From: Rubritepida sp.
GTDB lineage: Bacteria; Pseudomonadota; Alphaproteobacteria; Acetobacterales; Acetobacteraceae
Direction: 5' to 3'
NCBI GenBank assembly: GCA_028291455.1
Contig: JAQGHY010000208.1
Span: forward strand, 1 to 35,842
Length of the DNA: 35,842 nt
How positions within the stretch are numbered: the first letter of the stretch is position 1; each line of letters opens with the position of its first letter. Positions 23,763-35,842 of this stretch are shown here, piece by piece. The position numbers and the translations under genes were made by a program. The notes beneath the pieces were generated by a model that saw only the letters and a program-made list of their open reading frames with translations, was not told the origin of the DNA and ran no database searches.

Positions 23763-24464
23763 GTGGCAAACGACATGCAGCGGCGCCTGACCGCCGAATT
23801 CATCGGAACCTTCTGGCTTGTCTTCGGCGGTTGCGGCGCTGCCGTCTTCGCCGCGGCCTTTCCGCAGCTGGGCATCGGCTTCCTCGGCGTCTCCTTCGCC
23901 TTCGGCCTCACGGTGCTGACCATGGCCTATGCGGTCGGCCATATCTCGGGCGGCCACTTCAACCCGGCCGTCACGCTCGGCCTCTGGGCCGCGGGGCGTT
24001 GCGCCAACAAGCACGTGATCCCCTATGTCGTCGTCCAGGTTGCGGGCGCGATCGTGGCGGCCGGCGCGCTCTGGGTGATTGCCTCCGGCAAACCCGACTG
24101 GATCCCGGGCGGCTTCGCCTCCAACGGCTTCGGCGCGCTGAGCCCCGGCAAGTACAGCATGGAGGCCTGCTTCCTGGCCGAGCTGATCCTCACCTTCGTC
24201 TTCCTGGTGATCATCACCGGCACGACCTCGAAGGGCGCGGCGACGGGCTTTGCGGGCATCCCCATCGGCCTAGCGCTGACGCTGATCCATCTCATCTCGA
24301 TCCCGATCACCAATACCTCGGTAAACCCGGCCCGCAGCACGGCGCCGGCGCTCTTTGCGGGGGGCGAGTATCTCGGGCAGCTCTGGCTGTTCTGGCTGGC
24401 GCCGATCATGGGCGCAATGATCGCGGGCGTGCTGGCCCGCGTGCTTTACGAGAAGCCGGAGTGA
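23763..24464 (+). CDS. aqpZ: Aquaporin Z
   Basis: 233 residues from a GTG start; AAGGA six bases upstream supports it over the ATG at 23775. Six hydrophobic segments and the two NPA half-helices are present: NPA at 67-69 (GGHFNPAV) and NPA at 188-190 (SVNPARS). The selectivity filter of water-specific aquaporins is seen as an N-terminal Phe (TFWLVFGG), His176 (TLIHLIS), the Thr in NTSVNPAR and the Arg after the second NPA. It forms a tetrameric water channel in the inner membrane. The NTF2-like gene follows 71 bases later. A second, broken copy of the last 75 codons lies at 31908, so this copy is the intact one of a duplication. Confidence 0.96.
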
Positions 24465-24501
24465 ACAACGCTTCCGTTTGGTAACCGCCGTGTTAGCCTG
24501 A

Positions 24502-24527
24502 CCCTGGCCGGGAAACACCGGCCAGGG
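24502..24527 (+). promoter_or_regulatory. Ribosome-site-proximal hairpin in the aqpZ / NTF2-like leader
   Basis: CCCTGGCCGG and CCGGCCAGGG form a perfect 10-base stem with a GAAACA loop. The right arm ends inside the AGGGAGG Shine-Dalgarno of the NTF2-like gene (ATG at 24536), so the stem would partly mask it. In the second copy (32172-32197) the inner six pairs and the loop are unchanged while the outer pairs are weakened by a G-T pair and one mismatch. It could also attenuate read-through from aqpZ. Confidence 0.6.
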
Positions 24528-24535
24528 AGGACAAC

Positions 24536-24988
24536 ATGAATCTGAACCGTCGCAATCTGGCCGCCGCCGGCGCGGCCGCGCTCCTCGTCGGAGCCCTGCC
24601 CGCCGCCGCGCAAACCGCCGACGACCGGGCCGTAGCCCAGGCCGTCGAGGCACTCACCCGGGCCCTGCTCAACCCCGACCGCGCCGCGCTCGAAGCATTG
24701 ACGCATGATGCGCTGAGCTACGGCCACTCGGCCGGTCGGATCGAGAACAAGGCGCAGTTCATCGCCGCGCTGGTCGAACGCGGCAATCCGTTCGGCGAGA
24801 TCCACATCAGCGAGCAGACCATCGCGGTCGTCGGGGATGACGCGATCGTGCGTCACTTCTTCACCGGCAACACCACCGGCGGCGGGCGCGTGACGCCGGT
24901 GCGGATCGGCATCCTGCAGGTCTGGAAGAAGCAGGGCACCAACTGGCGGATGTTCGCGCGGCAGGCGTTCGTGCGTCCTACGGCCTAG
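24536..24988 (+). CDS. Exported NTF2-like (DUF4440 / SnoaL-like) small protein, copy A
   Basis: 150 residues with a strong GGAGG Shine-Dalgarno. It starts MNLNRRNLAAAGAAALLVGALPAAAQ, a signal peptide with an RR pair and an AxA cleavage site near residue 25; Tat or Sec export is possible. The mature part (about 125 residues) fits one NTF2-like cone fold: an N-terminal helix (AVAQAVEALTRALLNPDRAALEALTHDALSYGHS), then ENKAQFIAALVERGNPFGEIHIS, and strands with AIVRHFFTGNT and ILQVWKKQGTNWRMFARQAF. The W-x-x-x-x-x-x-W-R ending is typical of DUF4440 proteins. These bind or transform small ligands; nothing specific can be assigned. A 93 percent identical paralogue lies at 32206. The gene follows aqpZ and is ended by a clear terminator. 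Confidence 0.85.
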   Translation: MNLNRRNLAAAGAAALLVGALPAAAQTADDRAVAQAVEALTRALLNPDRAALEALTHDALSYGHSAGRIENKAQFIAALVERGNPFGEIHISEQTIAVVGDDAIVRHFFTGNTTGGGRVTPVRIGILQVWKKQGTNWRMFARQAFVRPTA

Positions 24989-24994
24989 CGGGAC

Positions 24995-25029
24995 CTGAGG
25001 GGCTCCGGCCCCTCAGCTTCTCCTTCATC
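24995..25029 (+). terminator. Rho-independent terminator after NTF2-like gene, copy A
   Basis: CTGAGGGG and CCCCTCAG form a perfect 8-base stem with a CTCCGG loop (24995-25016), followed by the T-rich CTTCTCCTTCATC. It starts 6 bases after the TAG stop. An analogous hairpin follows the second copy. Confidence 0.8.
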
Positions 25030-25079
25030 CCCGGCGCGTTTCGCCGCACGACATTACAAAACCCCATCATCGAAAATCC

Positions 25080-25096
25080 CGCGAAACCATTTCGCG
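25080..25096. promoter_or_regulatory. Perfect palindrome upstream of the MBL-fold gene
   Basis: CGCGAAA and TTTCGCG flank a 3-base spacer about 46 bases before the MBL start codon. It is followed by CTCCTTTTT, so it could be an operator or a second terminator behind the aqpZ/NTF2 unit. I found no convincing -35/-10 pair nearby. Confidence 0.4.
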
Positions 25097-25142
25097 CCGT
25101 TCTCCTTTTTGACTTGCCCCCTGCGGCAGGAGAGCCAGTCCG

Positions 25143-26030
25143 ATGCCCGTCCCGTTATCCAAGGCTTCGATCGCCATCGATTCCTCTGCCGACCGCGACC
25201 GCGGCGACGGCGTGCATGAGGTCGCCGCGGATATCGCCTACCTGCGACTTGCCATCGTCAACGTGGCCTTTCTCGGCCTCTCCGGGGCGGGCGACCGCGG
25301 CTGGGTTCTCGTCGATGCCGGCATCCCCGGAACCAAGGCCATGATCACCCGCGCCGCCGAGGCACGCTTCGGGGCCGGGGCGAGGCCTGCGGCGATCCTG
25401 CTCACGCATGGGCATTTCGACCATGTGGGCGTGCTGGAGAGTCTGGCGGAGGAATGGGATGCACCCGTCTTCGCCCACCCGCTGGAGCATCCCTACCTCA
25501 CCGGAACCGCCTCCTACCCACCGCCCGATCCCGCGGTGGGCGGTGGGTTGATGAGCGCGCTTTCACCACTCTTTCCCCGCAGCCCGATCGACCTCGGTCT
25601 GCGTCTGAACAGCCTCGAAGAGGACGGCTCCGTCCCCTTCCTGCCAGGCTGGCGCTGGCTTCCCACGCCGGGCCACAGCGTCGGGCACGTCTCCTTCTGG
25701 CGCGACGCGGACAAGGCGCTGCTATCGGGCGACGCCTTCATCACGACGCGGCAGGAATCCGCCTATGGGGCGATTTCCCAGGCACCGGAGATGCACGGCC
25801 CGCCGGCCTATTTCACGGTCGATTGGGACGCGTCGCGCGATTCCGTCCGCAGCCTCGCCGCCCTCGAGCCCGAACTGGTGGTGACGGGCCATGGCCGGGC
25901 CATGCGAGGGAGCGAGATGCGTGCCGCGCTGCACCTTCTCGCCCAGGATTTCGACAGCCTCGCGAGGCCCTCGCAAGGGGTCTACCTGGACCGGCCGGCG
26001 CGGGCGGCGGACGGGACCGCCTACCTCTGA
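25143..26030 (+). CDS. MBL-fold metallo-hydrolase
   Basis: 295 residues with AGGAG upstream of the ATG. The metal site of the metallo-beta-lactamase fold is complete: His89-x-His91-x-Asp93-His94 in THGHFDHVG, a third His in TPGHSVGHVSFW, the bridging Asp in LLSGDAFIT and the last His in VVTGHGRAM. The spacing is that of glyoxalase II-like and quinolinase-like hydrolases rather than true beta-lactamases. No signal peptide is seen, so it should be cytosolic. The order of motifs, with a 60-residue insert rich in Pro and Leu (residues 120-170), gives no specific substrate. It is the first gene of the accessory segment between the two aqpZ/NTF2 copies. The next frame is 111 bases downstream. Confidence 0.9.
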   Translation: MPVPLSKASIAIDSSADRDRGDGVHEVAADIAYLRLAIVNVAFLGLSGAGDRGWVLVDAGIPGTKAMITRAAEARFGAGARPAAILLTHGHFDHVGVLESLAEEWDAPVFAHPLEHPYLTGTASYPPPDPAVGGGLMSALSPLFPRSPIDLGLRLNSLEEDGSVPFLPGWRWLPTPGHSVGHVSFWRDADKALLSGDAFITTRQESAYGAISQAPEMHGPPAYFTVDWDASRDSVRSLAALEPELVVTGHGRAMRGSEMRAALHLLAQDFDSLARPSQGVYLDRPARAADGTAYL

Positions 26031-26141
26031 AGCGCAGGCCTCGCCTGCCGGGTTGAAGCAGGTGCTGGCCACCGCGCAGCAGCAGGTTTTCGCGCAAACC
26101 TCCGGCGCTTCCAGGCGTTCTCCGATCGGAAGGAGATTGCA

Positions 26142-26336
26142 ATGTCATCCAAAGCTCATCCACCTCCAGTACCGCCGGCCAATCGCTCGCCACAGGAGCG
26201 GGGGAAGCGTGGCCCCGGCGGGCCGGATCCTCGCTCCGACCACGGCAAGGCCAGCGAGCCCGGCCCGGATCGGGACAGCGGGACCGATGCGGTCGCGCCC
26301 AACACCCATCACCCCGGTTATCAGCAGGACCGATAA
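26142..26336 (+). CDS. Hydrophilin-like disordered protein 1 (64 aa)
   Basis: 64 residues behind an excellent AAGGAGA Shine-Dalgarno with a 7-base spacer, which argues for real translation. The protein has no Leu, Ile, Phe, Trp or Cys and a single Tyr, and is dominated by Pro, Gly, Asp, Ser and Arg, so it should be fully disordered. That composition resembles hydrophilins, the glycine-rich, very hydrophilic proteins induced by osmotic stress and drying. No family match is recognised, so this is a compositional description only. The second tiny gene starts 2 bases after its stop. Neighbours include a manganese catalase and a Crp/Fnr regulator. Confidence 0.65.
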   Translation: MSSKAHPPPVPPANRSPQERGKRGPGGPDPRSDHGKASEPGPDRDSGTDAVAPNTHHPGYQQDR

Positions 26337-26338
26337 GC

Positions 26339-26548
26339 ATGACCCAGCGGAACAAGGACCAGAAAAGCGTTCACTCCGGCGGCCCAGGTAGCAGCCATCA
26401 GGGCGGCAACCACGGCGAGACGCATCGGAGCGAAGGCGAGGTCAAACCCGGCGCCCCCACCAACGGCGAGCGCAGCCATGTCTCGGGCGGGGGCGGCGAG
26501 CGCGATTCCCACCATACGCACGATCCCAAACCAAGAGCTAGAGCGTGA
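26339..26548 (+). CDS. Hydrophilin-like, His/Gly-rich disordered protein 2 (69 aa)
   Basis: 69 residues starting 2 bases after the preceding stop, with AGGAC overlapping the end of gene 1 as a possible Shine-Dalgarno. Apart from the start Met it has no Leu, Ile, Phe, Trp, Tyr, Met or Cys. It is rich in Gly, Ser, Glu and Arg and has eight His, including HHTH near the end and the SVSGGGG-like SHVSGGGGER segment. It should be disordered; the histidines might bind metal, which is a guess. The pair with gene 1, same style and nearly same length, suggests a two-gene unit. No family is recognised. Confidence 0.6.
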   Translation: MTQRNKDQKSVHSGGPGSSHQGGNHGETHRSEGEVKPGAPTNGERSHVSGGGGERDSHHTHDPKPRARA

Positions 26549-26599
26549 TCGCCGCGGGCTGAATCAGCCGGAGGCGTGAATTACGCGTCAAAGAACAAC

Positions 26600-26631
26600 C
26601 CAGAGCTTTTCCCGCTCGCGAAAAACTCTGG
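26600..26631. promoter_or_regulatory. 12-bp inverted repeat in the leader of the alpha/beta hydrolase
   Basis: CCAGAGCTTTTC and GAAAAACTCTGG are complementary except at one position and are separated by 8 bases. The right arm ends 25 bases before the chosen ATG (26657). It could be an operator for a dimeric regulator or an mRNA hairpin. The lack of a T-run on the plus strand argues against a terminator for the small upstream genes. Confidence 0.5.
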
Positions 26632-26656
26632 ACCGACCGTCGGCGAAGGCAGTGGC

Positions 26657-27643
26657 ATGGCAAAACGCATCTGGATGATCGCGGCGGGCGCGCTCGGCGC
26701 CGCCGGCGCTCTCGGCGTCGCGAACGTGCTCGGCGCGCGGAGCGCGGAGCGCCGCTATCCGCCGGAGGGCCGCTTCCTGGAAATCGACGGCGTCCGGCTC
26801 CACTACACCGACGAGGGTCAAGGGCAGCCCATCGTCCTGCTGCACGGCAACGGCGCCATGGTCGAGGATTTCACCCTCAGCGGCCTGCCCGCAGCCCTGG
26901 CGCCCCGCTGCCGCGTGCTGGCCTTCGACCGGCCCGGCTTCGGCCACAGCACGCGGCCGCGCGATCGCCGCTGGACCGCCACGGCACAGGCGGCGCTGCT
27001 GCATGCCGCGCTGCGCGCCTTGGGCATCGAGCGCCCCGTCCTCGTCGGTCATTCCTGGGGGGCGTCGGTGGCGATTTCCTTCGCCCAGGAATATCCGGAC
27101 GATGCGGCGGCGATCGTCCTGATCTCCGGCTACTACACGCCGAAATGGCGGCCTGACCTGGTGATGGGATCCGTAGGTGCGCTCCCGGTCATCGGCCCCA
27201 TCCTGAACCACACGATTTTTCCGGTGCTGAACCGGCTGCTCGCGCCGCTGGCGCTGCGCCACCTCTTTGCGCCGAACGAGGTTCCTGCCTCCTTCAAGGC
27301 GGGGTTCCCGCTGGCGCTGGCGTTGCGGCCTTCGCAGCTTGCTGCCACCTCCATGGATACCGCAAATATGAACGAGGCCGCGGCGACCTCGCGCAAGCGT
27401 CTGGGGGACATCACGGTCCCCGTCGTCATCGTGGCGGGTTCGGCCGATGCGGTCGTGGACCCCGAAGGTCACTCCCTGGCGCTGCATCGGTTGCTGCCGG
27501 GCAGCGTGATGCGATCCGTCGCGGACACCGGCCACATGGTCCACCAGACGGCGACCGACGACGTCCTCGCGGCTATCGACACGGCGATCGCCGCGGGATC
27601 CGCCGCGCATCCGGGAGGGGACGAACAGCGGGCGGGTGCGTGA
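26657..27643 (+). CDS. Membrane-anchored alpha/beta hydrolase
   Basis: 328 residues from the ATG at 26657; the GTG at 26576 in the ORF track would add 27 polar residues and run through the inverted repeat, so it is less likely. The N terminus IWMIAAGALGAAGALGVANVLGA is a hydrophobic segment that could be an uncleaved anchor or signal. The hydrolase fold follows: HYTDEGQGQPIVLLHGNGAM with the oxyanion HGNG, FDRPGFGHSTRP, nucleophile elbow GHSWGAS, acid in VAGSADAVVDPEG and base His in TGHMVH. This is the classic epoxide hydrolase/haloperoxidase-like layout. Substrate unknown. It lies between the small disordered proteins and the manganese catalase, both suggestive of stress physiology. Confidence 0.88.
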   Translation: MAKRIWMIAAGALGAAGALGVANVLGARSAERRYPPEGRFLEIDGVRLHYTDEGQGQPIVLLHGNGAMVEDFTLSGLPAALAPRCRVLAFDRPGFGHSTRPRDRRWTATAQAALLHAALRALGIERPVLVGHSWGASVAISFAQEYPDDAAAIVLISGYYTPKWRPDLVMGSVGALPVIGPILNHTIFPVLNRLLAPLALRHLFAPNEVPASFKAGFPLALALRPSQLAATSMDTANMNEAAATSRKRLGDITVPVVIVAGSADAVVDPEGHSLALHRLLPGSVMRSVADTGHMVHQTATDDVLAAIDTAIAAGSAAHPGGDEQRAGA

Positions 27644-27699
27644 CCATCGCGGCAGGCAGACGAAGGCCCGTCCTAGCCGTGGCGCCGGAGCAGCCAAGC

Positions 27700-27738
27700 A
27701 ATAAAACCTCCAATCATTTGTTATTGTTGTCTTTTATT
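27700..27738. promoter_or_regulatory. AT-rich regulatory stretch upstream of the Mn catalase gene
   Basis: A short AT-rich island stands out in GC-rich DNA. It contains nested inverted repeats, AATAAAA / TTTTATT outside and CAAT / ATTG inside. It is the likeliest place for the promoter or operator of the catalase gene about 100 bases downstream. A Crp/Fnr protein is encoded just beyond the catalase, but the exact TTGAT-N4-ATCAA box is not seen. Confidence 0.35.
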
Positions 27739-27807
27739 CCAGTTCTCGCAACTCGCGCTCCCCGCTCGCCGTTCCAGTCTCAGCTCGGCCAGAGGTCATG
27801 TACCTCG

Positions 27808-27833
27808 CCACATAGCCAGGCCACATAGCCAGG
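27808..27833. repeat. 13-bp perfect tandem duplication reaching the Shine-Dalgarno of the catalase gene
   Basis: CCACATAGCCAGG occurs twice head to tail. The final AGG of the second copy is part of AGGAG, the ribosome binding site of the Mn catalase gene (ATG at 27842). The first copy leaves a decoy AGG 13 bases upstream. Confidence 0.7.
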
Positions 27834-27841
27834 AGTGTTCC

Positions 27842-28714
27842 ATGTATTTTCTCGATAAGCGCCTTCAGTATCCGGTTCGGGTCGAAACGCCCGACCCTCT
27901 TTTCGCGCGCCAGCTCCAGCAGGCCATCGGTGGGGTCGAAGGCGAGATCCGCGTCTGCCTGCAGTACTTCTTCCAGGCATGGGGCGCCCGCGGTCCCGAC
28001 ACCAAGTACCGGGACATGCTCCTCCACACCGCCACCGAGGAAATCGGCCATATCGAGATGCTCGCGACCGCGGTGGCGATGAACCTCGAGGACGCGCCGC
28101 TGACCCTGCAGGAGAGCGCCGCCGAGGCTCACCCGGTGATCAACGCCGTCATGGGCGGCGAGCGGCCCCGGCACGTCGTGGAGGGGATGTTGCAGCAGCA
28201 CATGCTGTCCAGCGGCCTCGCGGCGATGCCGGTCAATTCGGACGGCATTCCCTTCGACTGCTCGCACGTCTACGCCAGCGGCAATCTCGCGGCCGACATG
28301 TATGCGAACGTCACCGCCGAGGCGACAGGCCGGACGCTCGCCGTGCGCCTCTACAACGCCGCCAAGGACCCCGGCATGAAGGACATGCTGGCCTTCCTCA
28401 TAGCGCGCGACACCATGCATCAGCAGCAATGGCTCGCAGCGATCGAGGAGTTGGGGGGCAAGGCCGCCCTGCCGATCCCCGACAGCTTCGATCAGTCGAT
28501 GGAGAATCGCGAGTTCAGCTACACCTACATGGCCAGCGGGATCGACGGCACGCCTCCTCCGGAGGGGCGCTTCACCTCGGGCCCGTCGCTCGATGGCAAG
28601 GGTCAGTTCAGCGTCATGCAGAACCAGCCGATGGGCCAGGTTCCCAACCTGGGGCCGGCGCGTGCGGGTTCGGGCGCGCAGGTGACGCAGATCCTGAAGA
28701 TGTCGTCGCTCTGA
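27842..28714 (+). CDS. Manganese catalase family protein
   Basis: 290 residues with an AGGAG ribosome site. The ferritin-like four-helix core and dimanganese ligands are visible: a Glu in GGVEGEIRVCLQYF (33 or 35), Glu67 and His70 in ATEEIGHIEML, Glu160 in VTAEATGRTLAVRLY, and His193 in ARDTMHQQQW. The start MYFLDKRLQYPVRVETPDPLFARQLQQAIGG is that of the family, and the C-terminal tail with PPPEGRFTSGPSLDGKGQF is typical of the proteobacterial and Bacillus spore-coat-like branch. The enzyme breaks down hydrogen peroxide without heme in the cytosol. Length is normal. It has its own leader and a strong terminator, and precedes a Crp/Fnr gene. Plant-associated and desiccation-prone alphaproteobacteria often carry it on accessory DNA. 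Confidence 0.95.
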   Translation: MYFLDKRLQYPVRVETPDPLFARQLQQAIGGVEGEIRVCLQYFFQAWGARGPDTKYRDMLLHTATEEIGHIEMLATAVAMNLEDAPLTLQESAAEAHPVINAVMGGERPRHVVEGMLQQHMLSSGLAAMPVNSDGIPFDCSHVYASGNLAADMYANVTAEATGRTLAVRLYNAAKDPGMKDMLAFLIARDTMHQQQWLAAIEELGGKAALPIPDSFDQSMENREFSYTYMASGIDGTPPPEGRFTSGPSLDGKGQFSVMQNQPMGQVPNLGPARAGSGAQVTQILKMSSL

Positions 28715-28741
28715 CCCGAGCCGGCGCCACCTTTCGGACCA

Positions 28742-28763
28742 GGCGAGGGCAAGCGCCCTCGCC
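28742..28763 (+). terminator. Hairpin terminator after the Mn catalase gene
   Basis: GGCGAGGGC and GCCCTCGCC form a perfect 9-base GC stem with an AAGC loop, 28 bases past the TGA stop. No T-run follows, so it is a stem-only candidate. The remaining bases to 28946 hold no gene; ATCGCGCG occurs twice there (28872, 28895), 23 bases apart, in the likely promoter of the Crp/Fnr gene. Confidence 0.6.
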
Positions 28764-28946
28764 GCCAGTAGCCGATCATCGCCTGCGCAGGCATGCAGGC
28801 GACCGGTGCCGGGGCGGAGCAATCGGTGAGGCCCGGCGCGTCCTGGCGACGATTATCCTTACAGGGCAAAGATCGCGCGGCATCATTGCTTGTTATCGCG
28901 CGTTAAGGCTGCCTCTCCATATCGCAGGGAAGGGGATGGCCCAACG

Positions 28947-29696
28947 ATGTTGAACCCCGTTAGCCGCAAATTCCGCAATTTCGTTCGCTTCTCGGAGGCC
29001 GAGGAGGTCGAGCTCGAACACCTCGTCTCGGCGCGACGATTCGTGCGCGGTCCCCGGGTCGAACTCGGTCCCCGCGCCGCCCTGCCGGACGGCCTGCACG
29101 TCGTCCTCGAGGGCTGGGCCTGTCACTACAAGGTGCTGCCCAACGGGCGCCGGCAGATCACCGCGCTGTGCCTGCCGGGCGACTTCTGCATGGATCGTGC
29201 ATCGGTGCTCCGGCAGGTTTGCCACTCCGTCGGTACCCTGACGGCTGTCACCTTTGCCCAGCTCAGCCTGTCCGCAGTCGACGAGCTTTCGGCCAACTAC
29301 CCGCGTATTTCGACCGCCTTGGCCTGGCAATCCGAGGTCCAGGCAGCCGTGCAGCGGGAGTGGGTCGTCAATCTGGGACAGCGGGGCGCCACCGAACGAA
29401 TGGCGCACCTGCTTTGTGAAATCCATATGCGCCTTTGGATGGTGGATCTGGCCGAACACGGTTCCTGCGAAATGCCCCTCACGCAGGCCGACCTCGCGGA
29501 AACCATGGGTCTCTCCGCCGTGCATGTGAACCGGGTTCTGCAGGAACTCCGCAGTGCCGGGCTGATCGTCCTGCGAGGGCGTACCCTGACCATCCCTAAC
29601 CTGGATGCCCTACGCGAAATCGCCATGTTCGACCCCGGCTACCTGCATGCCGAACGCGAGGGCCGGCACCTTGATGCGAATGAATGGGCCGCCTGA
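28947..29696 (+). CDS. Crp/Fnr family transcriptional regulator
   Basis: 249 residues from the ATG at 28947, preceded by GGGAAGGGGA. The N-terminal cyclic-nucleotide-binding-like barrel is seen in residues 20-130 (VLEGWACHYKVLPNGRRQITALCLPGDFC is the usual GxxxxxxxxxGxxxxxxxxxPGD pattern). The dimer helix follows, then ERMAHLLCEIHMRL. The C-terminal winged helix-turn-helix reads TQADLAETMGLSAVHVNRVLQELRSAGLI, near residues 175-205. There is no N-terminal cysteine cluster of Fnr type and no obvious heme motif; this is a common orphan group in alphaproteobacteria that responds to unknown signals. It may control the adjacent catalase or small-protein genes, which is inference. It ends 4 bases before the stop of the convergent oxidoreductase gene. 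Confidence 0.93.
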   Translation: MLNPVSRKFRNFVRFSEAEEVELEHLVSARRFVRGPRVELGPRAALPDGLHVVLEGWACHYKVLPNGRRQITALCLPGDFCMDRASVLRQVCHSVGTLTAVTFAQLSLSAVDELSANYPRISTALAWQSEVQAAVQREWVVNLGQRGATERMAHLLCEIHMRLWMVDLAEHGSCEMPLTQADLAETMGLSAVHVNRVLQELRSAGLIVLRGRTLTIPNLDALREIAMFDPGYLHAEREGRHLDANEWAA

Positions 29697-29700
29697 TGCT

Positions 29701-30663
29701 TCACCGTAGCGCGGGCAGCACCCGCGTTGCGAAGGTCTCGATGAAGGCCCGCTGATTGCGGTCCACCTGATGAAGCTGGACCTCGTCGAAACCCATCTCG
29801 GCGAGTTCGGCGAGGCGCCCGGCATGCCAGCCGGGATCGGCCGAGATCCACACCGACTGCCGCATGTCCTCGGGCCGAACGAACCGAGTGGCGATGTCGA
29901 ACTCCTCGGGCGTGCGGAGCTCCCAGTTCACATCCCCACCCAGCGCGTTCGTCCGCCACTGCTCATGCGCGCCGGCGAGCGCCTCCGCCTCGGTTGGGGC
30001 CCAGTTCAGCGTCACCTGCGCGATCATCCGCTTGCCCTCGCCGCCGCCACGGCGGAAGGCGGCGACCACGCGGCGCATCTGCTCGGGTTCCGCGGACACG
30101 GTCAGCAGCCCATCCGCCCAGGCGCCGACCGTCTCGGCCGTCGCCTCCGTCACGGCCGCGCCGAGGCGCGGCGGGGGCACGGCGGGCCGGCTGTAGAGCT
30201 TCGCGTCCACCACGGTCACGAGGCCACGATGCGTCACCGTCTCGCCGGCGAGGAGTGCGCGGATCACGGTGGCGCATTCGGCCAACCGGCGCGTGCGCAG
30301 CGGCTTCTCGGGCCAGGGCAGGCCGGTGATGTCCTCGTTCAGCCGCTGGCCGCTGCCCAAGGCGAGCCAGAAGCGGCCGGGGAACATCTCGCCGAGCGTG
30401 GCAGCACCCTGGGCGATCACTGCCGGGTGGTAGCGATAGCCGGGGGCCGAGATGACGCCCATGCCCAGCTTCGTCGTTGCCATGGCCGCACCGAGCCAGG
30501 ACCAGGCGAAGCCGGACTGGCCCTGTGCGGTGCCCCAGGGACGGAAGTGGTCCGACGACATGGCGCAGTCGAAGCCGGCGGCCTCGGCGGCCTGTGCGAG
30601 GGCCAGGAGCTCGGACGGCGGGAACTGCTCATGCGAGGCGTGGAAGCCGATGCGGAGGGACAT
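29701..30663 (-). CDS. LLM-class flavin-dependent oxidoreductase
   Basis: 320 residues from the ATG at 30663 (MSLRIGFHASHEQFPP), with AAAGGG upstream; the 30729 start in the track is less likely. The luciferase-like TIM barrel is recognised by AAEAAGFDCAMSSDHFRPWG near residue 25, LGMGVISAPGYRYHPAVIAQGAATLGEMFPGRFWLALGSGQRLNE near residues 65-110 and ETVGAWADGLLTVS. The family uses FMN or F420 to oxidise small molecules; this sub-branch resembles the TIGR03885-like non-F420 group found in proteobacteria. Its substrate is unknown. It is divergent from the HAD gene and converges on the Crp/Fnr gene. Confidence 0.88.
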   Translation of the reverse strand: MSLRIGFHASHEQFPPSELLALAQAAEAAGFDCAMSSDHFRPWGTAQGQSGFAWSWLGAAMATTKLGMGVISAPGYRYHPAVIAQGAATLGEMFPGRFWLALGSGQRLNEDITGLPWPEKPLRTRRLAECATVIRALLAGETVTHRGLVTVVDAKLYSRPAVPPPRLGAAVTEATAETVGAWADGLLTVSAEPEQMRRVVAAFRRGGGEGKRMIAQVTLNWAPTEAEALAGAHEQWRTNALGGDVNWELRTPEEFDIATRFVRPEDMRQSVWISADPGWHAGRLAELAEMGFDEVQLHQVDRNQRAFIETFATRVLPALR

Positions 30664-30772
30664 GGCCGCGAACCCTTTCTGTGAGTCGATGCAACTGCCG
30701 AAGCGGCCGATGGTTCGCAGGAAAGGCATCGCGATTTCGCGCGTCTAACCCTTCATATCAAAGGTGATTCTC

Positions 30773-31441
30773 TTGGCGAAGGCGGTCATCTTCGACGTCG
30801 ACGGTACGCTCATCGACAGCAACGACCTGCATGTCGGGGCGTGGGTGGAGACCTTCCGGCATTTCGGCCATGAGGTCGCGGCCGAGGCGGTACGGCCGCA
30901 TATCGGCAAGGGCGGGGACCAGCTCATGCCGGAGTTCCTGCCTGCCGAGATGATCGAGGAGCGGGGCGAGGAAATCACGGCGTTCCGCACGAGCCTTTTC
31001 CTGCGCGAGTACATGCCGCGGGCCGAGCCTTTCCCCGCGGTCCGCTCGCTCCTCGCCAGGCTTCGCGAGGCAGGGCAGCGCATCGCGCTGGCGTCATCCT
31101 CAAAGCCGGAGGAGCTGGAGCGCTCCATCGAGATCACCGGCATAGCCGATCTGATCGACACCACAACCAGCTCCGCCGATGCGGAGCATTCCAAGCCGTC
31201 CCCCGACATTTTCAGGGCGGCGCTCGAGCGGCTCGCTCCGTTGCAGGCGGCCGATGCCGTGGTCGTGGGCGACACGCCATATGATGCAGAGGCTGCGGGC
31301 AAGCTGGGCCTGCGGACCATCGGCCTGCTCTGCGGAGGTTTTCCGGAGACTTGGCTGCGGGACGCTGGTTGCATCGCCATCTATCGGGACGCGGCCCATC
31401 TCCTGGCGGAATTCGAAGCGTCGGCACTGGCCGGACCGTGA
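30773..31441 (+). CDS. HAD-superfamily hydrolase, phosphoglycolate-phosphatase-like
   Basis: 222 residues from the TTG at 30773. The track uses GTG at 30764, but AAAGGTGA around that GTG is a near-ideal Shine-Dalgarno placed 5 bases before the TTG, while nothing precedes the GTG. Either start keeps the domain whole. HAD motifs: I is FDVDGTLIDSN (nucleophile and acid Asp), II is ALASSSKPEE, III is the Lys in HSKPSPDIF, IV is VVVGDTPYDAEAA. The cap is helical (C1), as in phosphoglycolate phosphatases and beta-phosphoglucomutases. The substrate is probably a small phosphoester in the cytosol. It is the last complete gene before the truncated frame and the second aqpZ/NTF2 copy. Confidence 0.88.
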   Translation: MAKAVIFDVDGTLIDSNDLHVGAWVETFRHFGHEVAAEAVRPHIGKGGDQLMPEFLPAEMIEERGEEITAFRTSLFLREYMPRAEPFPAVRSLLARLREAGQRIALASSSKPEELERSIEITGIADLIDTTTSSADAEHSKPSPDIFRAALERLAPLQAADAVVVGDTPYDAEAAGKLGLRTIGLLCGGFPETWLRDAGCIAIYRDAAHLLAEFEASALAGP

Positions 31442-31544
31442 CGGTGGCCGCGGTGACCGGCTGGGCGCATCGGAGAACCGCAACAGCCATTCACGGCAGC
31501 TTGCACCATTGATCATCGCCTGAATGACGGGTGGGCTACAGTTC

Positions 31545-31907
31545 TCACATCCAAGAGCGGACGAGCCGCTGAACCGCAGCGCGGATCGCCTCATGCTCGT
31601 CCCATCGCCTCACCGTATAGGTAAAGCTGATCTGCATCGCCGCTTCACCCTCTGCAGTGGTCGTGGTCCCGCATTTCGGATCGGCCTCCGGGGTCTGGCA
31701 CTGCGTGAATTCCAGCGGAATGCCCTCGGCGTTGCTCCGAATGAAGATCCGGCGGTCGAGATTGAAGCCCGGCATGATCGGCGGCCCGAGCGTCGTGACT
31801 TCCCAGGCTTCGGTATAGCCGATCGGAGCCGGAAGCGGTGTGTAGGCCACGTTTTTGGCCTGGCGGGCCTGAGCCCTTCCCATTGCATCGCGCAGCAGCA
31901 TCGGCGT
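31545..31907 (-). CDS. Unrecognised protein, probably 5'-truncated at the duplication boundary
   Basis: The ORF track shows a 138-residue frame to 31961, but its first 18 residues are antisense to the aqpZ fragment. The part outside the duplication runs from about 31907 and could start at the ATG at 31901 ([14 protein letters not shown]). It has protein-like composition ([20 protein letters not shown], then [20 protein letters not shown]) and ends SWM-TGA. I do not recognise the family. No Shine-Dalgarno precedes 31901, and the frame abuts the repeat junction within 7 bases, so loss of its original 5' end is likely. It converges on the HAD gene; the 103 bases between hold nothing I can support. 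Confidence 0.45.
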
Positions 31908-32134
31908 GCGGCGACGGGCTTTGCGGGCATCCCCATCGGCCTGGTGCTGACGCTGATCCACCTGATCTCCATCCCGATCACCATACCTCGGTGAACCCGG
32001 CCCGCAGCACGGCGCCGGCGCTTTTCGCGGGGGGCGAGTATATCGGCCAGCTCTGGCTGTTCTGGCTGGCGCCGATCATGGGCGCGATGATCGCGGGCGT
32101 GCTGGCCCGCGTGCTCTACGACAAGCCGGAATGA
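31908..32134 (+). pseudogene. Truncated, frameshifted aqpZ fragment
   Basis: This matches codons 159-233 of the intact aqpZ at 23763. The copy starts abruptly in [12 protein letters not shown], has no start codon, and lacks the first NPA half. One A is lost near 31983 (ATCACCATACC against ATCACCAATACC), which shifts the frame and brings in a stop; the original frame resumes as [21 protein letters not shown] and ends LYDKPE. The remaining differences are mostly third-position changes, as expected of a once-functional gene. It cannot make a channel. It leads into copy B of the NTF2-like gene. Confidence 0.9.
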
Positions 32135-32205
32135 ACAACGCTTCCTCTCGGAGCAAGCCGTGTTAGCCTGACCTTGGCCGGGAAACACCGGCCCGGGAGG
32201 ACAAC

Positions 32206-32658
32206 ATGAATCTGAACCGTCGCAATCTGGCCGCCGCCGGCGCGGCCGCGCTCCTTGTCCGAGCCCTGCCCGCCGCCGCGCAAACCGCCGATGACCGGGC
32301 CGTCGCCCAGGGCGTCGAGGCACTCACCCGTGCCATGCTCAACCCCGACCGGGCCGCGCTCGAAGCGCTGGCGCATGACGGGCTGAGCTATGGCCACTCG
32401 GCCGGGAAGATCGAGAGCAAGGCACAGTTCATCGCCGCGCTGGTCGAACGCGGCAATCCGTTCGGTGAGATCAACATCAGCGAGCAGACCATCGCGGTGA
32501 CGGGGGATGACGCGATCGTGCGCCACTTCTTCACCGGCAACACCACCGGCGGCGGACGGGTGACGCCGGTGCGGATCGGCATCCTGCAGGTTTGGAAGAA
32601 GCAAGGTTCGAACTGGCGGCTTTTCGCGCGGCAGGCGTTTGTGCGGCCTACGGCCTGA
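32206..32658 (+). CDS. Exported NTF2-like (DUF4440 / SnoaL-like) small protein, copy B
   Basis: 150 residues, full length, 11 differences from copy A at 24536, mostly conservative. The signal peptide (MNLNRRNLAAAGAAALLV then RALPAAAQ) carries a Gly-to-Arg change at residue 19, inside or at the edge of the hydrophobic core, which could weaken export. The NTF2-like core and the C-terminal QVWKKQGSNWRLFARQAF are intact. The GGGAGG Shine-Dalgarno is kept, and the upstream hairpin is kept in its inner six pairs. Codon-level changes without frame damage suggest the gene is still under selection, unlike the aqpZ fragment before it. Its promoter is unclear because the aqpZ 5' region was not copied. 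Confidence 0.85.
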   Translation: MNLNRRNLAAAGAAALLVRALPAAAQTADDRAVAQGVEALTRAMLNPDRAALEALAHDGLSYGHSAGKIESKAQFIAALVERGNPFGEINISEQTIAVTGDDAIVRHFFTGNTTGGGRVTPVRIGILQVWKKQGSNWRLFARQAFVRPTA

Positions 32659-32664
32659 CTATTC

Positions 32665-32694
32665 CCGAGGGGCGCCGCCTCTCGGTCTTTCCTT
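32665..32694 (+). terminator. Rho-independent terminator after NTF2-like gene, copy B
   Basis: CCGAGGGGC and GCCTCTCGG form a 9-base stem (one G-U pair) with a GCC loop, followed by TCTTTCCTT. It corresponds to the terminator of copy A but with a different stem sequence, so pairing was kept while bases changed. Confidence 0.75.
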
Positions 32695-32781
32695 CACCGT
32701 CATCCGAGCAACGCCTTCGAGGATGTCGGACAGCGCAAATTCCACGTCGAGACGGAGAACCATGGGCAAGTGGTTCCGGCC

Positions 32782-32832
32782 CGTCTCGGCGTGGTGCCCG
32801 TCTCGGCGTGGTGCCCGTCTCTGCGTGGTGCC
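32782..32832. repeat. 17-bp tandem repeat, three copies
   Basis: CGTCTCGGCGTGGTGCC occurs three times head to tail, the third with one G-to-T change. It lies in the 289-base gap between NTF2-like copy B and the Bug-type binding protein. A 48-codon frame (ATG at 32762) crosses it, but the 17-base period breaks any reading frame repeat, so coding is not supported. Nothing else in 32695-32947 looks like a gene. Confidence 0.75.
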
Positions 32833-32947: not shown

Positions 32948-33970
32948 ATGTCGCCGATCCCGCTTGTCAGAAGGCCTGCGCGGCAGCACCGCCGAACGAT
33001 CGCCCTCGCCGCGTGCTACGCCATGCTGGTCTCGATGTTCGGAGCGCCCGCCGCCGCCCAGACGGCGAACCGGCGGACGACCTTCATCGTCCCCGCTGCC
33101 GCTGGCGGCAGCACGGACGTGATCGCCCGCGTGCTGGCGGAGCACATGGCCCGGACCCTCGGCCAGACCGTGGTGGTGGAGAACGTGTCGGGCGGGCAGG
33201 CGACTGTCGCATCGGCCCGCACCGCGGCCTCGGCACCAGATGGAGCGACGGTGCTCATCGCGCAGCTGCCCCTCGTCTCCGCCCCTTTTCTCTTTACCGG
33301 CCTGCGCTACGACACGCAGACGGCCTTCGCGCCGGTCGGGCTGATTAATGCCGGATACACCGTGCTCATGGCCCGCAAAGGATTAGCGTCCTCGCCGTCC
33401 GAGGCGATCAGCCGGCTCCGCGAGAACGGCAATGGTGCCAATCTCGGCAACGGCGGGATCGGCAGCAGCGGCCATTTCTGCGAGATGCTGCTGGCCCGGG
33501 CGCTCGGCATCCAGCCGACCTTCGTCCCCTATCGCGGCGGCGCCATGGCCATGAACGACCTCATCGGCGGATCGCTGGACGCCATTTGCGACCAGTCCAC
33601 GAATGCCGTGCCGCAAATCCTGGCAGGTGCGGTGCAAGGCGTCATGGTCGCCGGTCCGGCGCGCATCGCCACCCTTCCCGATGTCCCCACCTCCGCCGAG
33701 CTCGGCCTGCCCGAGGTCAATCTCGCCGTGTGGCATGGAATGTACGTCGCGCGGGCAACGCCGCGCAGCATCGTCATGCAGCTGAATGCGTCCCTCGGCG
33801 CAGCACTGGCGGATCCCGCCGTCGTGGCGCGATTCAGCCAGCTGGGGACGACGGTGTTCCCCGAGAGCCAGCGGGCGCCCGAGGCGCATGAGGCGCGATT
33901 CCGCGAGGAATATCAGCGCCTCGGCCGCCTCCTGTCCTCGATGGGCATCACGCCGCAGACTGTTGAATAG
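32948..33970 (+). CDS. Bug-family tripartite tricarboxylate transporter substrate-binding protein
   Basis: 340 residues behind AAAGGGG. The N terminus has a long signal peptide, RRTIALAACYAMLVSMFGAPAAAQ, cut near residue 38. The mature protein opens TTFIVPAAAGGSTDVIARVLAEHMARTLGQTVVVENVSGGQ, the Bug signature, with SAPDGATVLIAQ and FVPYRGGAMAMNDLIGGSLDAICDQ as further blocks; the Asp in the last one lies where many Bug proteins contact the ligand amino or carboxyl group. The ligand is unknown. The C-terminal ARATPRSIVMQLNASLGAALADPAVVARFSQLGTTVFP is typical. It is followed 32 bases later by an SDR gene with its own strong ribosome site, so both are probably one transcript for uptake and oxidation of some carboxylate. 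No TctA/TctB genes are present. Confidence 0.92.
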   Translation: MSPIPLVRRPARQHRRTIALAACYAMLVSMFGAPAAAQTANRRTTFIVPAAAGGSTDVIARVLAEHMARTLGQTVVVENVSGGQATVASARTAASAPDGATVLIAQLPLVSAPFLFTGLRYDTQTAFAPVGLINAGYTVLMARKGLASSPSEAISRLRENGNGANLGNGGIGSSGHFCEMLLARALGIQPTFVPYRGGAMAMNDLIGGSLDAICDQSTNAVPQILAGAVQGVMVAGPARIATLPDVPTSAELGLPEVNLAVWHGMYVARATPRSIVMQLNASLGAALADPAVVARFSQLGTTVFPESQRAPEAHEARFREEYQRLGRLLSSMGITPQTVE

Positions 33971-33988
33971 TGCAGACTGTTGAATAGT
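33955..33988. repeat. 17-bp perfect tandem duplication over the stop of the Bug gene
   Basis: GCAGACTGTTGAATAGT occurs twice head to tail. The first copy holds the last codons and TAG stop of the binding-protein gene; the second lies between that stop and the AAGGAG site of the SDR gene. Confidence 0.8.
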
Positions 33989-34002
33989 AAAGGAGTGTAG
34001 AC

Positions 34003-34782
34003 GTGGATTTAGGAATTTCGGGTCGCCACGCGATCGTCTGCGCCGCCAGCAAGGGCCTCGGCCGGGCCTGTGCGGAGGCGCTGGCCCGGGAGGGCGTGGG
34101 CCTCACCATTGCCGCCCGGACGCGTGCCGATATCGAAGCGACGGCGGAGGCGATCCGCCAGGCCTATGGCGTGCCAGTCACCGCAATTGCCGCCGATGTC
34201 ACGACGGTGGAAGGCCGCGCCGCCATCCTGGCTGCGGCGCCCCGGGCCGATATCCTCGTCAACAATGCCGGCGGCCCGCCGCGCGGCGATTTCCGCAGCT
34301 TCACGGCGGAGCAGTGGCTGGCTGCGGTCAACGACAACATGGTCGCCGCCATCGAGTTGATCCGCGCCCTGGTCGACGGAATGATGGAGCGGCGCTTCGG
34401 GCGGATCGTGAACATCACCTCCTCGGCCGTGAAGAGCCCCACCGCGGACCTCAGCCTTTCGACGGCGGCACGGCTCGGCCTGACCGGCTATGTGGCGGGG
34501 GTCGCGCGGCAGATCGCGGGGCACAACGTGACGGTGAACAACCTTCTCCCCGGGGCCTTCGAAACCGACCGCTTCCGCGGCGGCGTGACGGCCCGCGCCA
34601 AAGCGGCCGGGATTACTTACGAGGAGCAGTTCGAGCGCCAGCGCAGCACCATCCCCGCGCATCGGGTCGGCGATCCGGCCGAGTTCGGCGATGCTTGCGC
34701 CTACCTCTGCAGCCGGCAGGCCGGCTATATCACGGGCCAGAACCTGCTTCTCGACGGCGGCCAGTTTCCAGGAACGTTCTAG
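34003..34782 (+). CDS. SDR-family oxidoreductase with atypical catalytic motif
   Basis: 259 residues from a GTG start; AAGGAG sits 7 bases upstream. The Rossmann fold is clear: IVCAASKGLGRACAEALAREG (residues 11-31) is a variant of the TGxxxGxG motif with Ala for Thr-Gly, NNAG is at 87-90, and the C-terminal VNNLLPGAFETDRF and YITGQNLLLDGGQFPGTF are normal. At the active site Ser140/141 is present, but the YxxxK position reads SerThrAlaAlaArg (153-157), so both catalytic Tyr and Lys are replaced. A FabG-like SDR subgroup that reads LSN-xxR here is known to me, so this is a family trait rather than a mutation. The reaction is unknown. It is probably co-transcribed with the upstream Bug-type receptor. 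Confidence 0.88.
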   Translation: MDLGISGRHAIVCAASKGLGRACAEALAREGVGLTIAARTRADIEATAEAIRQAYGVPVTAIAADVTTVEGRAAILAAAPRADILVNNAGGPPRGDFRSFTAEQWLAAVNDNMVAAIELIRALVDGMMERRFGRIVNITSSAVKSPTADLSLSTAARLGLTGYVAGVARQIAGHNVTVNNLLPGAFETDRFRGGVTARAKAAGITYEEQFERQRSTIPAHRVGDPAEFGDACAYLCSRQAGYITGQNLLLDGGQFPGTF

Positions 34783-34916: not shown

Positions 34917-35842
34917 TTACTCCGCCGCCTGCAGCTCCATGGTGTCGGCATAGGCCTCGAGCGGCGCGCAGGTGCAGACCAGGTTCCGGTCGCCATGGAC
35001 GTTGTCCACGCGCTTCACCGGCGGCCAGTACTTGTTCGCCTTGACATAGGGCAGCGGGAACGCCGCCGCCTCGCGCGTGTACGGATGCGTCCAATCCGTC
35101 GCCATCACCTCGGCGGCAGTGTGGGGCGCGTTCTTGAGCGGGTTGTCCGACCGGTCCATCCGCCCCTGCTCCACCGCGCGGATTTCGCCGCGGATCGAGA
35201 TCATGGCGTCGCAGAAGCGGTCGAGCTCCGCCTTGGTTTCGCTCTCCGTCGGCTCCACCATCAGCGTGCCGGTGACGGGCCAGCTCATGGTCGGCGCGTG
35301 GAAGCCGTAATCCTGCAGGCGCTTGGCGATGTCCTCGACCATGACGCCGCCGCCCTGCTGGAAGCCGCGGCAATCCAGGATGCACTCATGCGCCACCATC
35401 CCCTGCCCGCCCCGGTAGAGGATCGGGAAATGGTCGCGCAGCCGCACCGCCACATAGTTGGCGTTGAGGATGGCGACCTGGGTGGCGCGGGTCAGCCCCT
35501 CGCCGCCCATCATGCGGATGTAGCAGTAGCTGATGGGCAGGATCGCGGCCGAGCCGAAGGGCGCGGCGGAGACCGGGCCGAAGCCCGTCGCGGGCCCGGC
35601 CTCGGCCACCAGCGGATGGTTCGGCAGGTGCGGTGCCAGGTGCGCCGCCACGCCGATCGGGCCGACGCCCGGCCCACCGCCGCCATGGGGGATGCAGAAC
35701 GTCTTGTGCAGGTTGAGGTGGCTGACGTCCGCGCCGAACGCACCGGGCCTGGCCAGGCCGACGAGCGCGTTGAGGTTGGCACCGTCGACGTACACCTGAC
35801 CGCCGTGCTCGTGGACGATCGCGCAGAGCTCACCGATGCCCG
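34917..35842 (-). CDS. gcvP: Glycine dehydrogenase (decarboxylating), P-protein, C-terminal part
   Basis: The frame is open to the right edge, so the GTG at 35795 is internal and the gene starts outside the window. About 308 residues are visible of a protein usually near 950. Upstream of the track start the reading continues [28 protein letters not shown], typical of GcvP. The PLP lysine lies in [19 protein letters not shown], the most conserved segment of the family, and the tail has [25 protein letters not shown] and ends [19 protein letters not shown]. The P-protein decarboxylates glycine and passes the aminomethyl group to the lipoyl H-protein. The 134 bases between this stop and the SDR stop hold a weak CCAGGG/CCCTGG hairpin and no gene. 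Confidence 0.96.

What the first reader, a model, noticed from the sequence alone, without database searches (positions are those of the whole stretch)
24237..32695. About 790-bp direct repeats (aqpZ 3' end + NTF2-like gene) bracket a 6.9-kb stress-type segment
24237-25030 and 31908-32695 align in the same orientation. One copy has a whole aqpZ; the other begins abruptly at codon 159 of it and carries a frameshift. This is the pattern left by single-crossover integration of a circular or incoming DNA carrying part of aqpZ plus the NTF2-like gene, or by a tandem duplication that was later filled. The enclosed genes (MBL hydrolase, two hydrophilin-like proteins, hydrolase, Mn catalase, Crp/Fnr, LLM oxidoreductase, HAD) would be the cargo. 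Recombination between the copies would remove about 7.67 kb as a circle and leave one intact aqpZ-NTF2 unit. About 8 percent divergence argues for an old event or a diverged donor.
Basis: partly seen in the sequence, partly recalled or inferred. Interest (0 to 1): 0.7.

Follow-up and report, generated by a model that had tools for sequence, protein, structure and literature searches.

The report
Two diverged aqpZ-NTF2 copies flanking insert
A bacterium of the Roseococcus group has a second, broken copy of an aquaporin-gene end plus its neighbour, with about 7 kb of stress-related genes between the two copies; this is probably the scar of one incomplete exchange of DNA with a close relative, an ordinary kind of genome change.

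Summary
Copies at 24237-25030 (L) and 31908-32695 (R) lie in the same orientation, 7,670/7,671 nt apart: aqpZ part 93.8% identical, NTF2-like gene 91.8%. R starts abruptly at aqpZ codon 159 and has a 1-nt deletion. Three relatives (R. pinisoli, Roseococcus sp. SYP-B2431, a Rubritepida MAG) have thrC-aqpZ-NTF2 once; gcvPB follows, with different genes between. None has a second copy or this cargo there, so the arrangement is derived, in a variable slot between NTF2 and gcvPB.

L and R are each other's closest relatives, with dS about half that to the nearest species. The truncated aqpZ carries far fewer amino-acid changes than neutral drift since the L/R split predicts (3 seen, 17-19 expected), so the alleles diverged while functional and the truncation is later. 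That favours a diverged donor over an old duplication.

Best reading: incoming DNA (aqpZ-NTF2-L-cargo) recombined by homology upstream and joined illegitimately inside the resident aqpZ, stranding the resident aqpZ 3' end and NTF2-R. No mobile-element gene was found in the cargo; several of its genes sit elsewhere in relatives. Circle integration, a later-truncated tandem duplication or an assembly chimera are not excluded. Ordinary; low-to-moderate interest.

The parts
23763..24464 (+). aqpZ, complete (aquaporin Z), left copy
   Evidence: NCBIfam PRK05420.1 aquaporin Z, 359 bits; same context upstream (thrC, M16 peptidase, pmbA) in three relatives
24237..25030 (+). left repeat copy L: aqpZ codons 159 to stop, NTF2-like gene, terminator-like hairpin
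24536..24988 (+). NTF2-like (DUF4440/SnoaL) gene, left copy, 150 aa
   Evidence: Pfam DUF4440 E=1.2e-16; matches in 11 of 20 other genus genomes
25031..31907 (.). 6.9-kb segment between the copies: MBL hydrolase, two hydrophilin-like ORFs, alpha/beta hydrolase, Mn catalase, Crp/Fnr, LLM oxidoreductase, HAD, unknown ORF; no mobile-element gene found
   Evidence: homologues of several genes at scattered loci in relatives
25143..26030 (+). MBL-fold hydrolase
   Evidence: Pfam PF00753; 80% DNA identity to G007 C23:604548-605452
26142..26336 (+). hydrophilin-like small ORF 1
   Evidence: sequence; similar DNA in G001 C475 and G007 C23:607 kb
26339..26548 (+). hydrophilin-like small ORF 2
   Evidence: sequence; 72% DNA identity in G007, 82% in G001
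26651..27643 (+). alpha/beta hydrolase
   Evidence: Pfam PF00561; 67.5% aa identity in G001 C475 next to the hydrophilin
27842..28714 (+). manganese catalase
   Evidence: Pfam PF05067 E=1.8e-77; 81% aa identity in G004; gapped relic in G001 C475
28947..29696 (+). Crp/Fnr regulator (a second gene of this type is at own contig C161)
   Evidence: Pfam HTH_Crp_2
29701..30660 (-). LLM-class oxidoreductase (TIGR03885)
   Evidence: 486.7 bits, above cut-off; 84% DNA identity to G007 C23:616535-617516
30764..31441 (+). HAD-family hydrolase
   Evidence: Pfam HAD_2; no sizeable DNA match in the genus
31545..31907 (-). end of an ORF of unknown family whose frame runs open into the joint; possibly a gene cut off at its 5' end
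   Evidence: no match in 20 other genus genomes or 299 other family genomes, in plasmids, PHROGs or NCBIfam
31907..31908 (.). abrupt joint between the cargo end and aqpZ codon 159
31908..32695 (+). right repeat copy R: aqpZ 3' fragment with 1-nt deletion (about 31983), NTF2-like gene, terminator-like hairpin
32206..32658 (+). NTF2-like gene, right copy, 150 aa, open
   Evidence: 93% aa identity to the left copy; L/R dN 0.041, dS 0.233
32948..34782 (+). TctC-type (Bug) binding protein and SDR gene, in the NTF2-gcvPB slot
   Evidence: Pfam TctC; SDR by reading of the sequence; not in this slot in the relatives compared
34917..35795 (-). gcvPB (glycine dehydrogenase subunit 2, named by reading), right core anchor
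   Evidence: 90-93% aa identity, near NTF2 in 7 other genus genomes (G001, G006, G007, G008, G012, G015, G019)

Best explanation
The two copies are alleles of one core locus brought together in a single transfer, not a duplication made in place. The resident aqpZ 3' end, NTF2(R) and resident downstream genes (Bug, SDR, gcvPB) were left behind, displaced about 7.7 kb, and the stranded aqpZ fragment then took a frameshift. This is homology-facilitated illegitimate recombination (HFIR), or one-sided recombination with the same outcome. Shown: structure, derived state, L/R relationship, truncation later than most of the L/R divergence. Inferred: a donor, linear DNA, direction of transfer, order of events.
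For: Relatives carry one aqpZ-NTF2 unit between thrC and gcvPB with other genes in the slot: cupin in R. pinisoli, cupin plus a substrate-binding-type ORF in SYP-B2431, a SulP-type plus a channel-type ORF in the Rubritepida MAG, a 284-aa ORF in G006; only about 75 bp between NTF2 and gcvPB in G008, G015 and G019 (gene names of fillers by reading). L and R group together (bootstrap 100 on the repeat; 92 on NTF2 codons) but are well diverged (dS 0.21-0.23, against 0.45-0.57 to the other species). aqpZ fragment polarised with three outgroups: L branch 9 synonymous/0 nonsynonymous, R branch 2/3 plus the deletion (Fisher p=0.027), yet only 3 nonsynonymous changes where 17-19 are expected had R been neutral since the split (Poisson P<=4e-5). 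So both aqpZ alleles were functional for most of the divergence and R decayed late. One abrupt joint (31908), with the other boundary within homologous sequence, fits one homologous plus one illegitimate end. Published precedent: PMC3240628, PMC5361080.
Against: No donor with aqpZ-NTF2-MBL... was found. Homologues of the cargo genes sit at other loci in relatives, so the donor must already have assembled them behind NTF2. No allele switch was visible upstream of aqpZ, but without a conspecific genome the test has little power. The polarised counts are small (14 changes) and the expectation assumes the neutral nonsynonymous rate equals dS. HFIR is rare outside competent bacteria (PMC3240628), and competence was not examined here.
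Confidence: 0.45

Rival explanations
1. Campbell-type integration: a circular DNA carrying aqpZ (from codon 159)-NTF2-cargo integrated by one crossover within the aqpZ-NTF2 homology, making both copies host/donor chimeras.
For: Gives the same gross structure and needs one illegitimate joint plus one crossover. Weak hint: relative branch lengths flip between the aqpZ part (L 9, R 5 changes) and NTF2 (L 14, R 21).
Against: The change-point test along the repeat is not significant (p=0.69). No replication, mobilisation or integration gene was seen in the segment. No plasmid record covers 80% or more of the repeat; the best rows are aqpZ only, at 71-75% identity.
Confidence: 0.2
2. An older tandem duplication of the complete aqpZ-NTF2 unit within this lineage, whose second aqpZ was later truncated when the stress genes were inserted between the copies.
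For: L and R are sisters that split after the divergence from the nearest sampled species; late truncation also fits this order.
Against: Needs at least two or three independent events, with the insertion ending exactly at the truncation; no genome with two intact units was seen among 21 genus genomes.
Confidence: 0.17
3. Assembly chimera: two strains' versions of one locus (aqpZ-NTF2-cargo, and aqpZ-NTF2-Bug-SDR-gcvPB) joined at 31908 in a fragmented draft.
For: The assembly has 356 contigs at 89.8% completeness; the neighbouring MAG G001 has a contig break with an exact 127-nt overlap right after NTF2, a sign of a graph branch at this place.
Against: The joint is not inside shared sequence; the longest identical L/R run is 61 nt; no N's. 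The R aqpZ fragment has a frameshift and an excess of nonsynonymous changes, expected of a really truncated gene but not of an intact allele from another strain.
Confidence: 0.15

Closest known systems
Homology-facilitated illegitimate recombination (HFIR), reported in Streptococcus pneumoniae, Acinetobacter baylyi and Pseudomonas stutzeri; low frequency in E. coli conjugation (PMC3240628)
   Same: One homologous end and one illegitimate end, new DNA added, resident sequence at the joint lost.
   Different: Inferred from one genome only; donor, linear DNA and the homologous crossover point were not seen.
Orphan immunity gene arrays in Vibrio cholerae T6SS clusters, explained by module insertion that displaces the old effector and leaves the old downstream immunity gene (PMC5361080)
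   Same: The resident upstream gene is broken or displaced, the resident downstream gene is retained, and the new unit is inserted in front of it.
   Different: The genes are an aquaporin and an NTF2-like protein, not effector and immunity; one event, not a series; no known benefit of keeping NTF2-R.
Hotspots of gene turnover between core genes without mobile elements (PMC5635113)
   Same: Accessory genes differ between genomes in a fixed core interval (NTF2-gcvPB), and no integrase or transposase was found.
   Different: That work infers double homologous exchange at flanking core genes; here one end looks illegitimate, and only about eight genomes of one genus could be compared.

Membership tests
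HFIR product | homology to the resident chromosome at one end of the inserted DNA | tested here: met
   aqpZ-NTF2-L is homologous to the resident locus over the repeat and the gene order upstream is conserved
HFIR product | illegitimate joint at the other end | tested here: met
   abrupt loss of homology at 31908 inside aqpZ
HFIR product | deletion of resident DNA at the joint | tested here: met
   aqpZ codons 1-158 are absent from the R copy
HFIR product | linear incoming DNA from an identifiable donor | tested here: inconclusive
   no donor arrangement in the genus genomes searched, the GTDB r220 scan or plasmids
Campbell-type single-crossover integrant | direct repeats of the homologous region at both ends of the insert | tested here: met
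Campbell-type single-crossover integrant | copies are reciprocal host/donor chimeras | tested here: inconclusive
   no change-point (p=0.69), little power
Campbell-type single-crossover integrant | circular donor with replication or transfer genes | tested here: not met
   no such gene recognised in 25031-31907
Mobile genomic island or transposon | integrase or transposase, tRNA target, or terminal repeats of its own | tested here: not met
   no tRNA, no recombinase among the annotated genes, no inverted repeat of 60 nt or more
Hotspot between core genes | different accessory content between the same core genes in related genomes | tested here: met
   NTF2-gcvPB interval differs in G001, G006, G007, G012 and this genome, and is nearly empty in G008, G015, G019

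The most novel reading that the evidence does not exclude
The interval behind NTF2 in Roseococcus is a recombination hotspot without mobile elements, in which stress-gene sets are swapped by one-sided recombination anchored in thrC-aqpZ-NTF2, leaving stranded aqpZ'-NTF2 copies as scars that record each swap.
Probability: 0.25. Interest if true: 0.4.

Novelty: new member of a known kind. Interest (0 to 1): 0.22.

Why it matters
It is a readable scar of what is probably one-sided recombination in a non-model alphaproteobacterium, and shows how accessory stress genes can enter a core interval without any recognised mobile element. The selection test on the stranded aqpZ piece is a simple way to tell transfer of a diverged allele from an old duplication. 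No new system or function is implied.

Tried and rejected
Mobile element around the cargo: rejected, no integrase, transposase, tRNA or terminal repeats found. Rfam: no RNA family in the window. Plasmid origin of the repeat: only aqpZ-level hits, 71-75% identity in the best rows. Origin of the ORF cut at 31907: no homologue in 20 other genus genomes, 299 other family genomes or plasmids. Crossover point inside the repeat: none detectable. Allele switch upstream of aqpZ: none visible. Translocation of one whole block from the G007 stress region: rejected, since MBL, hydrophilin and LLM flank a 5.4-kb block in G007 that lies on another contig (C154) in this genome. A first NTF2 tree was discarded because some loci were read on the wrong strand; the corrected one is.

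Full report
OBSERVATION. The repeat is real and is the only direct repeat of 60 nt or more in the window. L is 24237-25030, R 31908-32695, same orientation, spacing 7671 then 7670. Identity is 93.8% in the aqpZ part, 86% in the intergenic stretch and 91.8% in the NTF2-like gene; it fades just beyond a terminator-like hairpin after NTF2. R starts at the first base of aqpZ codon 159 and has a 1-nt deletion near 31983. A search of the whole draft genome finds no third copy.

WHERE IT LIES. The window is one whole contig (C195) of a 356-contig, 89.8% complete draft. Its nearest searched relatives include Roseococcus sp. SYP-B2431 (G007), R. pinisoli (G012) and a Rubritepida MAG (G001). All three have pmbA - M16 peptidase - thrC - aqpZ - NTF2, then gcvPB after a short, different filler: cupin (G012), cupin plus a substrate-binding-type ORF (G007), a SulP-type and a channel-type ORF (G001, read across two contigs that overlap by exactly 127 nt). 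In more distant members NTF2 is also near gcvPB but without aqpZ in front: about 75 bp apart in G008, G015 and G019, and with a 284-aa ORF between them in G006. So a single aqpZ-NTF2 unit is the older state, the NTF2-gcvPB interval is variable, and this genome's cargo, second unit and Bug/SDR pair are all additions there. Filler gene names rest on reading the translations, not on family searches.

THE CARGO. No integrase, transposase or tRNA was found. Several genes have homologues elsewhere in relatives: MBL (604 kb), hydrophilin (607 kb), LLM (616 kb) and Crp (365 kb) on one G007 contig; hydrophilin plus hydrolase plus a gapped Mn-catalase relic on G001 contig C475; Mn catalase in G004. The 5.4-kb block that separates hydrophilin and LLM in G007 is on another contig here (C154). 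HAD has no sizeable DNA match in the genus, and the last ORF (31545 to the joint, minus strand) has no homologue in the genomes searched; its frame is open into the joint, so it may be a gene cut at its 5' end. The cargo is thus a mixture from a shared pool of stress genes rather than one element.

DUPLICATION OR DONOR. L and R group together against G001, G007 and G012 (bootstrap 100; 92 on NTF2 codons). Synonymous divergence between them is 0.21-0.23, about half that to the three species (0.45-0.57). Polarised with the three outgroups, the L aqpZ part has 9 synonymous and 0 nonsynonymous changes, the R part 2 and 3 plus the deletion (Fisher p = 0.027): R has lost constraint. But if R had been a dead fragment since the L/R split, 17-19 nonsynonymous changes are expected and 3 are seen (P <= 4e-5). 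Most divergence therefore happened while both aqpZ alleles worked, and truncation came late. That is what transfer between two related lineages predicts; a full-length tandem duplication truncated much later would also do. The numbers are small. Constraint on NTF2-R (dN/dS about 0.17 between copies) has the same ambiguity and does not prove that it is used now.

MECHANISM. One homologous boundary and one abrupt joint are enough. Incoming aqpZ-NTF2(L)-cargo, paired upstream, with its far end joined inside the resident aqpZ, yields the observed order in one event and leaves the resident aqpZ 3' end and NTF2(R) behind. This is homology-facilitated illegitimate recombination (PMC3240628), and the outcome parallels the displaced immunity genes of Vibrio T6SS clusters (PMC5361080). 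Gene turnover between core genes without mobile elements is a known general pattern (PMC5635113). A circle with one crossover gives the same map; it predicts chimeric copies, for which I found no sign (p = 0.69, weak test). An assembly chimera cannot be excluded without reads; the frameshift and the nonsynonymous excess in the stranded fragment, and the lack of shared sequence at the joint, speak against it.

VERDICT. Observation confirmed; interpretation partly supported, with a simpler mechanism preferred. A new example of a known kind of event; interest low to moderate.

Noticed in passing
window 26541-26592: About 52-nt dispersed hairpin repeat (AGCGTGATCGCCGCAGG...CCGGAGGCGTGAATCACGC). 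One search aligned nine places in this genome (this one included) and others in G001, G007 and G010; an exact pattern found 3 in this genome, 4 in G001, 9 in G010, 1 each in G007 and G019, 0 for the reversed control. One stem pair is GC in eight copies and AU in four; consensus energy -17.9 kcal/mol. Resembles REP-type repeats; the associated transposase was not looked for.
   Followed up: partly
L062 (G001 contig C475) 7386-7660: Matches to the sequence before the Mn catalase gene and to its last codons lie side by side with the middle missing: a gapped relic of the gene.
   Followed up: no
window 32780-32830: Three head-to-tail copies of 17 nt (CCCGTCTCGGCGTGGTG, one mismatch in the third) just downstream of the right NTF2 copy, seen by eye.
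   Followed up: no
L117 (own contig C154) 8411-13852, minus strand: An 1813-aa open frame that by reading looks like a trehalose/glycogen-type fusion; the same DNA block is in G007 between homologues of the cargo genes.
   Followed up: partly
L026 end / L027 start (G001 contigs C134, C499): Exact 127-nt overlap right after NTF2, as at a branch of an assembly graph; no third contig with it in the bin.
   Followed up: yes
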